A stretch of 64,000 nt of DNA. Origin: Desulfobacterales bacterium RIFOXYA12_FULL_46_15. GTDB taxonomy: Bacteria; Desulfobacterota; Desulfobacteria; Desulfobacterales; Desulfobacteraceae. The translations under genes and the position numbers were made by a program. Positions 40,946 to 43,669 of this stretch are shown here, piece after piece; within the stretch, counting starts at the first letter, position 1, and every line of letters begins with the position of its first letter. The stretch covers positions 1-64,000 of the forward strand of contig MGTJ01000006.1 of NCBI GenBank assembly GCA_001799395.1, read 5' to 3'. A model generated the notes under the pieces. That model searched no databases. It was not told where the DNA came from and worked only from the letters and a program-made list of their open reading frames with translations.

Positions 40946-41500
40946 ATGGATACGATTGAGATCATTGAAACTTCAGGCGATTTTGCGAAACAGGTTGAAA
41001 AACTGAGCCATGCGAATCTGAACCGGTGCTGGCATTGTCTTGCCTGCAGCGGTGGATGCCCGTTTGCAGAAGATATGGACTTTCTTCCCAATGTAATCAT
41101 CCGGATGATTCAATTCGGATTAAAGGAAAAAGTATTAAAGAGTTCAACCATCTGGTTGTGTGTGGGATGTAATACCTGTTCCATGGAATGCCCCAATGCC
41201 GTGGATATGGCAGCCATCATGGATTCGCTGAGGCAAATGGCAATTTTGGAACATTACCTGATTGCCGAACCCGGTATTTTATCCTTTCACAATTCGGTTA
41301 TCAATTCCATCTTCCGGCACGGCCGGACCCATAAACTTGAAATCATGATGAAATATAAAATTGCTGAAAAAGACCTGTTTTCAGACTTTAATCTGGGGCT
41401 CAAAATGCTGGCTAAAAAGAAACTGGATCTTCTGCCGTCCAAGGTTAAGGACAAAAAAGGAATTAAATCTCTTTTCAACCTGTCCGGAGGGATATCATGA
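40946..41500 (+). CDS. HdrC-like iron-sulfur protein
   Basis: A 184-residue ferredoxin-type subunit of a heterodisulfide-reductase-like complex. Two full [4Fe-4S] motifs are visible: C28-C31-C34-C38 and C72-C75-C78-C82. The chain continues with a basic C-terminal tail. It should pass electrons to the HdrB-like partner encoded next with a 4-nt overlap. In sulfate reducers such subunits occur in several electron-confurcating or quinone-linked complexes. No HdrA, MvhD or QmoC gene is adjacent. Confidence 0.92.
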   Translation: MDTIEIIETSGDFAKQVEKLSHANLNRCWHCLACSGGCPFAEDMDFLPNVIIRMIQFGLKEKVLKSSTIWLCVGCNTCSMECPNAVDMAAIMDSLRQMAILEHYLIAEPGILSFHNSVINSIFRHGRTHKLEIMMKYKIAEKDLFSDFNLGLKMLAKKKLDLLPSKVKDKKGIKSLFNLSGGIS

Positions 41501-42369
41501 CCCTTAAAGACTTAAGCTATTTTCCAGGATGTTCCCTTGCCACCACGGCCAAAGAAAACAATGCATCCTTAAAATCATTTCTCGCACATTTTGATATCAC
41601 TGTTTCTGAAATAGATGACTGGAACTGCTGCGGTTCTTCATCCACCCACAGTGTAAATAAAAAACTGGCCCTGTCCCTTGCAGCACGGAACCTTTTTCTT
41701 GCCCCGCCGGATAAGCCCCTGCTGATTGCCTGCCCGGGATGTTATCTCAGGCTGAGTCATGCAAAAATGGAATTAAACGACTCTAAAGAAAAAGCAAAAG
41801 AATATGAAGATCATTTTAAAAAACCGTTTCACAAAGATATTCAATTGCTCCATTTTTTTGAACTGCTGGTGAAAATGAACGGCAAAGGCCTGTTGAAAGG
41901 TCTGGGCGGCCGGCTCAAGGGGCTGAAAATCGCGCCTTATTATGGCTGTATGCTGGCAAGACCGCCAAAAATGAATAAACAGAAAAATCATTACGGCCTT
42001 ATTGAAAAAACCATGGCTGCCCTTGGCGGAGATCCTGTTCAATGGCCTTTTCTATCCACCTGCTGCGGGACCTTTTTATCGGTCAGCAAGCCCGGGATAT
42101 CGGAAAAACTCGTCAACAGGATCATGCAGGGCGCCATAAAATCCGGGGCTGAATGCATTGTCACGGCCTGTGCCATGTGCCATCTGAACCTGGAAATCCG
42201 GTGCAGACCGGAAAACCGGTTGCCGGTATTTCATTTTTCAGAAGTTCTCTCCCTGGCCCTTGAAAAAAATGCTTCAAAAAACTGGTTCAAGCGCCATTTG
42301 ATCAACCCTGAGCCATTGATGGAAAAACGGCAGCTCATCTTGTGCCGGGCCCCTATAAAAGGAGAATAA
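41497..42369 (+). CDS. HdrB-like protein with two CCG domains
   Basis: A 290-residue catalytic-type subunit with two cysteine-rich CCG domains: C12, C44-C45-G46, C79-x2-C82, and C151, C189-C190-G191, C225-x2-C228. Both sets are complete, so both non-cubane [4Fe-4S] clusters that cleave disulfides in HdrB could form. The natural disulfide or thiol substrate in this organism is unknown. The gene converges with the selenoprotein gene, with only 13 nt between stops and no hairpin. Confidence 0.92.
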   Translation: MTLKDLSYFPGCSLATTAKENNASLKSFLAHFDITVSEIDDWNCCGSSSTHSVNKKLALSLAARNLFLAPPDKPLLIACPGCYLRLSHAKMELNDSKEKAKEYEDHFKKPFHKDIQLLHFFELLVKMNGKGLLKGLGGRLKGLKIAPYYGCMLARPPKMNKQKNHYGLIEKTMAALGGDPVQWPFLSTCCGTFLSVSKPGISEKLVNRIMQGAIKSGAECIVTACAMCHLNLEIRCRPENRLPVFHFSEVLSLALEKNASKNWFKRHLINPEPLMEKRQLILCRAPIKGE

Positions 42370-42382
42370 AAATGACTATGAT

Positions 42383-43012
42383 TCATTTTTTATCCTGTTT
42401 CTTTAAAACAGCTTTCAGCACGGCGGTATGAACATCCGCGGCCATATGAACCGGGCTTTTCCCCCACAAAGGATCCCAGGCTGCCGGATCGGCCGAGCAG
42501 ACAAACTGGACCTCAAGGCCGAATCGTGTCAATGCGTCTTCAATGGGCAGACCCTTCATTTCTTCGGCCGCGTGCCAGGTGGCCCCGCAGGGCGCCCCTT
42601 TCAAAACCCGGATGTCCTTAATCACACCCTTTTCCGTGGTCACTTCAATTTCAGGCGTTCCAAAAAACTCTCCATAATCCCCAAGACAGACCTGTCTTGC
42701 AAGGGAACATCAGGTGGGTGGGCAGACAGCCCTGCCCCGGGTATGCTTTTTGCCTGAAGCAATGACCGGGATATTCAATTTGTCACAAAGGAGACTTAAA
42801 TCTTCTGAAAGATCCCGGTTTTTGAAAAAGTCCATGACAAGATCGGCCTCCAGGGTTTCCGGCAGATAAGGGGAGGTATCATCCAGAACCGGCGGCAGGG
42901 GGATGTCAATATCTACGGTTTCGATAATGAACCGGCCCTGCCCGAATTCTTTGATGCCTTCTATTTTTGCCCGCCCGGACCCGTTCTGTTGGAAAATAAG
43001 TATCTTCTGCAT
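42383..43012 (-). CDS. Probable selenoprotein, DUF166-like, with in-frame TGA (Sec101)
   Basis: Two open segments on the minus strand, 43012-42713 and 42709-42386, are in the same frame and divided by one TGA at 42712-42710. Read through, they make one 209-residue protein: an N-terminal part ending RAVCPPT, then U101-C102-S-L, EFFGTPEIEV, and KGAPCGATWHAAEEMKGLP near the C-terminus. The second half alone lacks a good start. The CSL, FG-P and GAPCG pattern resembles DUF166/COG1810 proteins of unknown function as I recall them. A SECIS-like hairpin follows the TGA at the right distance. It starts 3 nt after a LUD-domain gene, so both are co-transcribed. A nonsense mutation is the alternative. 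Confidence 0.82.
42679..42712 (-). promoter_or_regulatory. Bacterial SECIS-like hairpin after in-frame TGA
   Basis: Seventeen bases after the TGA (42712-42710) the minus strand reads CAAGACAGGTCTGTCTTG (42699-42682), a perfect seven-pair stem closed by GGUC, with CCC/GGG pairing further out across a small bulge. The apical CAGGUCUG is identical to that of the E. coli fdhF SECIS element as I know it, where the loop lies 18 nt after its UGA. Position, loop sequence and stem all fit SelB recruitment. Confidence 0.82.
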
Positions 43013-43015
43013 TTA

Positions 43016-43669
43016 TTAAAATCCTAAATCTTCATTCACAAGGATAATCTTGATCCTGTGTTTTATAAAACTCTTTTCCGTAATTGTCCAGTAATTGCAG
43101 ATCCTGTCAGGGCTTTTGCAGTCCTGGCAGACCCCGGTCTCCCGGCAGGGTGTTTTCTTATCAAGATTCATTGCATTCACCGGAGCCGCATAGGTTTTAA
43201 CCCTGATCATGGCTTCTTCGATATCCCCGCAGATTTTATTTCTTCCAATTATCAGAAGTACATTTTTCGGCCCCCACATGATGGCTGCCACCCTGTTTCC
43301 GACCATATCCAGGTTCACGAGCTGTCCTGCTTCAGTAACGGCATTGGTGCCGGTGATAAAAAGATCCACCATCAGGGACCGCCTTCTTAAGTCCATCATC
43401 TCATCTTTTGAAAGGCTCTTATCAAAGGTATTGAGAACTTGAAGGTTCGGACGGTCCTTTAATTCATGAAAAAGTCCTGTGGCAACAAAAGACATGGACC
43501 CTCCCCAGGAAACGGTTTTAATGTCAAGTTTTGGAATTATTTCAGTTAATGCCGTTTCGCTCGCCTCTTTCGCATCTTTTGCAATAAAAACTTCAAAATT
43601 ATTTTTTTCAAGATTTTCTTTTACTACCCCAAGTTTCAGATTCCAGTAATTATCAATAGGATTTTTCAT
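43016..43669 (-). CDS. LUD-domain protein (LutC/YkgG-like) with C-terminal cysteines
   Basis: A 217-residue protein with the LUD core seen in lactate-utilisation proteins: a substrate-loop region TVSWGGSMSF, then TGTNAVTEAGQLVNLDMVGNR and WGPKNVLLIIGRNKI. The C-terminus adds a cysteine cluster (PCRETGVCQDCKSPDRICNYW) that could bind metal or Fe-S. Such proteins accompany lactate oxidation complexes, but no lutA/lutB partner is here. It is the first gene of a two-gene unit with the probable selenoprotein. Confidence 0.87.
   Translation of the reverse strand: MKNPIDNYWNLKLGVVKENLEKNNFEVFIAKDAKEASETALTEIIPKLDIKTVSWGGSMSFVATGLFHELKDRPNLQVLNTFDKSLSKDEMMDLRRRSLMVDLFITGTNAVTEAGQLVNLDMVGNRVAAIMWGPKNVLLIIGRNKICGDIEEAMIRVKTYAAPVNAMNLDKKTPCRETGVCQDCKSPDRICNYWTITEKSFIKHRIKIILVNEDLGF

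What the first reader, a model, noticed from the sequence alone, without database searches (positions are those of the whole stretch)
42383..43012. DUF166-like selenoprotein: in-frame TGA with a textbook SECIS hairpin
Two minus-strand frames share one phase and are split only by TGA at 42712-42710. Seventeen nucleotides later lies CAAGACAGGTCTGTCTTG, a perfect stem closed by GGUC. Its apical CAGGUCUG is the same as in E. coli fdhF, where the spacing is 18 nt (from memory). The predicted Sec101 is beside Cys102 (UC-S-L), so a selenylsulfide or metal site is possible. I do not know of a described selenocysteine form of this family.
Basis: partly seen in the sequence, partly recalled or inferred. 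Interest (0 to 1): 0.92.

Follow-up and report, generated by a model that had tools for sequence, protein, structure and literature searches.

The report
Known selenoprotein of unknown function (DfsP)

Summary
One minus-strand frame, 43012..42383, is cut only by TGA at 42712-42710 and followed by a SECIS-type hairpin. The spacing is worded wrongly: the stem starts 10 nt after the TGA; 17 nt is the distance to the GGUC loop. Recoding is well supported. The genome has tRNA-Sec, SelA, SelB and SelD. Of 91 genes in the order (this one included), 61 have TGA and 30 a Cys codon at this column, and Cys always follows. The hairpin is kept far above synonymous-codon chance in TGA genes and is at chance in Cys genes. 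The novelty claim fails: NCBIfam NF041372, 'DUF166 family (seleno)protein DfsP', matches at 319.6 bits, cut-off 200, and two reviews list DUF166 as a selenoprotein family, citing a 2007 paper. New here is a lead on function: plain DUF166 proteins share Cys102, Cys142 and a Cys near 172 but have Phe or Leu at the Sec column, and some lie in CODH/ACS operons or beside SufBD or a P-loop ATPase. No CODH/ACS or SufBD gene was found near dfsP.

The parts
42383..43012 (-). dfsP: DUF166-family selenoprotein gene, 209 codons before the terminal TGA
   Evidence: translation with TGA read; PF02593 132.3 bits; NF041372 319.6 bits, cut-off 200
42710..42712 (-). in-frame TGA, selenocysteine codon 101
   Evidence: sequence; TGA in 61 and a Cys codon in 30 of 91 genes
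42682..42699 (-). bacterial SECIS-type hairpin, 7-bp stem with GGUC loop at 42692-42689; stem starts 10 nt and loop 17 nt after the TGA
   Evidence: fold; family-wide pairing and synonymous-codon control
42707..42709 (-). Cys102 codon, next to Sec101; Cys in 91 of 91 DfsP and in the 9 plain DUF166 rows that cover it
42587..42589 (-). Cys142 codon (APCG motif); Cys in 91 of 91 DfsP and 9 of 9 plain DUF166 rows
42497..42499 (-). Cys172 codon; Cys in 90 of 91 DfsP; the 9 plain DUF166 rows have Cys one alignment column on
42446..42448 (-). His189 codon; His in 90 of 91 DfsP and 9 of 9 plain DUF166 rows
43016..43669 (-). LUD-domain gene directly upstream, 3 nt between its stop codon and the dfsP start; LUD gene upstream in all 10 dfsP loci of the window's own family
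   Evidence: PF02589 166 bits; neighbourhoods

Best explanation
The gene is dfsP of a Desulfobacula-like bacterium. Ribosomes reach the UGA at codon 101; SelB, bound to the hairpin just downstream, delivers Sec-tRNA and the full 209-residue protein is made (inferred from sequence, well supported). Sec101 sits next to Cys102 and adds one soft ligand or nucleophile to three cysteines (102, 142, about 172) and a histidine (189) that the plain DUF166 proteins examined share. My best guess for the chemistry (not shown, and much less sure than the recoding) is a redox or metal/iron-sulfur handling site built from these residues, with Sec tuning a site that Cys can also serve.
For: Single frame cut only by TGA. 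Complete Sec machinery: tRNA-Sec 76.1 bits, SelB 341.1, SelA 608.7, SelD 372.8, all over cut-off. 61 TGA and 30 Cys codons in 91 genes and Cys at +1 in all (its motif asks for that Cys, but the independent alignment shows the same in 91 of 91). SECIS pairing 357 of 406 cells against a synonymous mean of 274.8; Cys genes at chance; loop position 22 is G in 58 of 58 distinct Sec genes; pair 15-30 occurs as C-G (38), A-T (14) and G-C (2). Of the 61 Sec genomes, 49 have tRNA-Sec over cut-off and 8 more have SelB over cut-off. Shared Cys and His.
Against: No expression or protein data. 4 of 61 Sec genomes (drafts 73-87% complete) show neither tRNA-Sec nor SelB over cut-off. The hairpin alone is no better than chance folding (z -0.90), and only 23 of 58 distinct Sec genes have all seven pairs. 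The site chemistry rests on conservation only; the structure model failed (mean pLDDT 38.2) and no convincing solved relative was found.
Confidence: 0.93

Rival explanations
1. The TGA is a sequencing error or a nonsense mutation in a decaying gene.
For: The window is from a draft assembly of 250 contigs.
Against: 61 of 91 genes carry TGA in exactly this column and the other 30 a Cys codon; the protein is conserved on both sides; the hairpin is kept above chance only in TGA genes.
Confidence: 0.02
2. UGA works as a conditional stop: under selenium shortage the 100-residue front part is made on purpose and has its own function.
For: UGA always competes with release factor 2 (established knowledge, no call).
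Against: Cys forms, which cannot be cut short this way, occur at 30 of 91 loci, two of them in the window's genus; the three widely shared Cys lie after the UGA.
Confidence: 0.04
3. Function rival 1: DfsP is a thiol/selenol oxidoreductase using a Sec101-Cys102 selenylsulfide.
For: Adjacent Sec and Cys in 61 of 61 Sec genes, Cys-Cys in 30 of 30 others.
Against: No UxxC or CxxC motif in the sequence and no Pfam match other than DUF166; Cys102 is conserved in 9 of 9 plain DUF166 rows with Phe or Leu at 101, so the ancestral site does not need the pair.
Confidence: 0.3
4. Function rival 2: DUF166, including DfsP, serves assembly or repair of CODH/ACS or related metal clusters.
For: A plain DUF166 gene lies between cdhA and the CO_dh epsilon gene in a CODH/ACS operon (models TIGR00314, PF02552, TIGR00316), beside a SufBD-core protein in another family and beside a P-loop ATPase in a third. 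A 2007 table lists COG1810 (MMP0976) and the CO_dh gene MMP0984 among proteins of methanogens and A. fulgidus (passage). One dfsP locus, L062, has two genes downstream with about 44-53% identity to the last two genes of that operon (NuoE/NuoF-like by my reading, not scanned), and three Cys-form loci (L106, L114, L116) have a ParA-like P-loop ATPase directly upstream (my reading).
Against: No CODH/ACS, SufBD or close relative of that ATPase was found at 91 dfsP loci of at most 6 kb each side, often cut by contig ends (blastp E 1e-5, tblastn E 1e-10; of its two ACS queries only the L195 one has the length of the ACS frame). CdhC presence is only weakly tied to dfsP: 78 of 91 with, 151 of 200 without, Fisher p 0.063, phylogeny not corrected.
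Confidence: 0.2

Closest known systems
NCBIfam NF041372, DUF166 family (seleno)protein DfsP
   Same: Equivalog match over the full profile, 319.6 bits against a cut-off of 200; the model's name covers Sec and non-Sec forms
   Different: Nothing tested differs; this is one more member
DUF166 selenoprotein listed in PMC9312934 and PMC13188914, citing Zhang and Gladyshev 2007 (Olavius algarvensis delta symbiont)
   Same: Same Pfam family and, in the 2026 table, the same model NF041372 (table passages and reference entries seen)
   Different: Other organism; the 2007 paper is not held, so its own evidence was not read
Plain DUF166 / COG1810 (PF02593)
   Same: Same Pfam family; shared Cys102, Cys142, a Cys one column from 172, and His189
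   Different: Phe or Leu instead of Sec/Cys at column 101 in the 9 rows that cover it; one such protein scores 73.5 bits on NF041372, below the cut-off; different gene neighbours

Membership tests
NF041372 DfsP | score over the curated cut-off (200 bits), full-length match | tested here: met
   319.6 bits, profile 1-203 of 203
Bacterial selenoprotein | in-frame UGA aligned with Cys in homologues | tested here: met
   61 TGA, 30 Cys, 0 other in 91 genes
Bacterial selenoprotein | SECIS hairpin just downstream of the UGA, under selection | tested here: met
   357 of 406 cells paired against 274.8 expected; Cys genes at chance
Bacterial selenoprotein | SelA, SelB, SelC, SelD in the genome | tested here: met
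Bacterial selenoprotein | selenium in the protein | not testable with these tools
   needs 75Se labelling or mass spectrometry
PF02593 DUF166 | score over Pfam gathering cut-off (24.4) | tested here: met
   132.3 bits
CODH/ACS accessory factor | gene inside or beside CODH/ACS genes | tested here: not met
   0 of 91 dfsP loci, at most 6 kb each side; met by plain DUF166 in another family of the phylum
CODH/ACS accessory factor | co-occurrence with CODH/ACS | tested here: inconclusive
   78 of 91 against 151 of 200, p 0.063, not corrected for phylogeny
Thioredoxin-like redox selenoprotein | UxxC or CxxC motif and thioredoxin-fold family match | tested here: not met
   motif is C-P-P-T-U-C; only PF02593 matches at E 0.001

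The most novel reading that the evidence does not exclude
DUF166 is an unrecognised metal-cluster assembly or repair factor (in its plain form linked to CODH/ACS, SufBD or a P-loop ATPase), with a three-Cys plus His site, and DfsP is a version split off for another client, in which a Sec/Cys was gained next to the ancestral Cys102 and which has switched between Sec and Cys repeatedly.
Probability: 0.15. Interest if true: 0.6.

Novelty: new member of a known kind. Interest (0 to 1): 0.28.

Why it matters
It is one more member of a selenoprotein family that has a name but, as far as the searches here reach, no function. What could matter is the comparison: Cys102, Cys142 and a Cys at about 172 are shared with plain DUF166 proteins, and Sec101 is an addition at a place where those have Phe or Leu. 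Together with the operons of plain members this gives a concrete first hypothesis for an uncharacterised family.

Tried and rejected
Structure: AlphaFold2 on the window protein with four Desulfobacula relatives (the named loci that the search for related loci gave) gave mean pLDDT 38.2 and pTM 0.34; not used, no fold search made. Solved structures: 54 sequences up to E 1, most of them designed ankyrin proteins against the C-terminal part (best E 3.1e-5); I read them as chance likeness, without a further test. IMG/VR: no relative; plasmids: no match. Rfam on the window: nothing over gathering. An RNase P search was made only to obtain the genome frame and says nothing here.

Neighbourhood as a clue: in 91 dfsP loci a gene of one ABC-ATPase cluster ends within 400 nt upstream on the same strand in 22 (one representative scanned, best match ABC-F at 366.9 bits, just under its cut-off of 380), LUD in 10, and otherwise mixed genes. 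I found no functional theme. LUD was rejected as a general partner because it was found only in the window's own family. The link of dfsP to CODH/ACS was tested and not confirmed. Of six plain-DUF166 neighbours scanned, one (L187_3) matched no Pfam family.

Rows dropped: of 95 genomes with a match, 4 with fragments below cut-off (G118, G138, G214, G256) and two extra fragments in G084 and G104 were left out, leaving 91. In one search, identical hairpins were merged (61 to 58 Sec). One search gave 30 loci; 16 are plain DUF166, and 7 of these were matched by my profile only in their N-terminal part and so count for nothing at column 101. The tree is a quick one of 113 rows, 24 of 110 inner branches starred; it needs 17 Sec/Cys changes at fewest, but starred branches force only 2, so the number of switches is not established. 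Paper searches: one search listed only 20 of 115 papers, nearly all on other DUF166x names; two searches were general listings.

Full report
Observation. Minus-strand frame 43012..42383 reads 209 residues, interrupted only by TGA at 42712-42710. CAAGACAGGTCTGTCTTG at 42699-42682 folds as a 7-bp stem with a GGUC loop. It starts 10 nt after the TGA; the loop starts 17 nt after it. Of 3015 TGA triplets on both strands of the window this is the only one with such a stem and a GG loop at that spacing, -1 to +2 nt. The hairpin on its own is not unusual (37 of 200 shuffles fold as well; 8.7% of synonymous recodings keep all pairs), so the case rests on the family.

Genome and machinery. The nearest named loci are Desulfobacula sp. 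MAGs (87-91% for three, 71% for one). The genome (250 contigs, 96.4% complete) has tRNA-Sec (76.1 bits), SelB (341.1), SelA (608.7) and SelD (372.8, itself with an in-frame TGA), all over their cut-offs.

Family. The product matches PF02593 DUF166 (132.3 bits) and NCBIfam NF041372, 'DUF166 family (seleno)protein DfsP' (319.6 bits, cut-off 200). In the order, 95 of 291 genomes match and 91 pass the cut-off, the window's included. In those 91 genes column 101 is TGA in 61 and a Cys codon in 30, and the next residue is Cys in all 91 (whose motif asks for that Cys; the alignment shows the same independently). In the 58 distinct TGA genes 357 of 406 stem cells pair, against 274.8 for synonymous recodings (maximum of 300 trials 296); in the 30 Cys genes 100 of 210 pair, against 99.1. 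Only 23 of the 58 have all seven pairs; pair 16-29 is broken in 20 and pair 20-25 in 16. One Cys gene of the window's genus, L067, still has 6 of 7 pairs and the GG loop, which looks like a recent Sec-to-Cys change (inference).

Sec trait in relatives. tRNA-Sec passes its cut-off in 78 of 91 dfsP genomes. The other 13 (12 Sec, 1 Cys) stayed negative on a deeper look; 9 of them (8 Sec, 1 Cys) have SelB over cut-off. So 57 of 61 Sec genomes have tRNA-Sec or SelB; the other four are drafts of 73-87% completeness. Of the 30 Cys genomes, 29 have a tRNA-Sec match (two only just over the cut-off of 47, about 51 bits) and one has SelB only, so Cys forms are not explained by loss of the Sec trait.

What is known. 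PMC9312934 and PMC13188914 (table passages and reference entries seen) list a DUF166 selenoprotein and cite Zhang and Gladyshev 2007; the later table names NF041372. The 2007 paper is not held. Full-text searches found DUF166 phrases in these two reviews only, PF02593 in none, COG1810 in one distribution table, and DUF166 with CODH and ACS in none; add nothing on function, but one search showed only 20 of 115 papers. The library holds open-licence papers only. The Sec form is therefore described; its function, as far as these searches reach, is not.

Site and function. In the plain DUF166 proteins of the phylum that my alignment covers here (9 of the 16 plain rows among 30 loci), column 101 is Phe (5) or Leu (4), while Cys102, Cys142 and His189 are kept in 9 of 9, and a Cys lies one column from Cys172. 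In DfsP, Cys102 and Cys142 are in 91 of 91, Cys172 and His189 in 90 of 91. So Sec101 looks like an addition next to an ancestral Cys (inference; the direction depends on rooting by plain DUF166). In one family of the phylum five plain DUF166 genes (L181-L185) lie in a CODH/ACS operon: CdhA was scanned in L181, the CO_dh epsilon subunit and CdhC in L185; L182-L184 agree in gene sizes only, and in L185 no intact CdhA frame was found. In another family all five loci (L176-L180) have a 405-440 residue ORF just upstream; one was scanned and is SufBD-core. In a third, a P-loop ATPase gene overlaps the start; one was scanned (CbiA/MinD class; the likeness to CooC is recalled, not tested). A 2007 table lists COG1810 (MMP0976) and CO_dh (MMP0984) among proteins of methanogens and A. 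fulgidus (passage). These point to metal-cluster work for plain DUF166. For DfsP this is not confirmed: no CODH/ACS, SufBD or close relative of that ATPase was found at 91 dfsP loci, and CdhC co-occurrence is weak (78 of 91 against 151 of 200, p 0.063). Small exceptions: L062 has two genes like the last two of that operon, and L106, L114 and L116 have a ParA-like ATPase upstream.

Verdict. Interest 0.28, mainly for the functional lead.

Noticed in passing
40946-42369 (+): HdrC-like and HdrB-like gene pair (QmoC/HdrC and SdhE/HdrB models, below equivalog cut-offs) running towards dfsP and ending 13 nt from its end.
   Followed up: partly
L143 (G000:C57:11291-12217): The genome's own selD match carries an in-frame TGA, so SelD is probably a selenoprotein too.
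   Followed up: no
L181-L185: Plain DUF166 gene in a CODH/ACS operon, between cdhA and the CO_dh epsilon gene in L181; an uncharacterised protein in a central carbon pathway.
   Followed up: partly
G186 (L101) and 8 other genomes: SelB over cut-off but no tRNA-Sec found on two looks; G186 is a single contig. Perhaps an unusual or interrupted tRNA-Sec, or a limit of the search.
   Followed up: partly
43016-43669 (-): LUD-domain gene 3 nt upstream of dfsP; LUD is upstream in all 10 dfsP loci of the window's family and was not found at the other 81.
   Followed up: partly
L067 (dfsP homologue): Cys form that still keeps a SECIS-like hairpin (6 of 7 pairs, GG loop), a possible fossil of a recent Sec-to-Cys change.
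   Followed up: partly
L106, L114, L116: ParA-like P-loop ATPase gene directly upstream of a Cys-form dfsP and an MlaE-like permease gene downstream (names by my reading).
   Followed up: no
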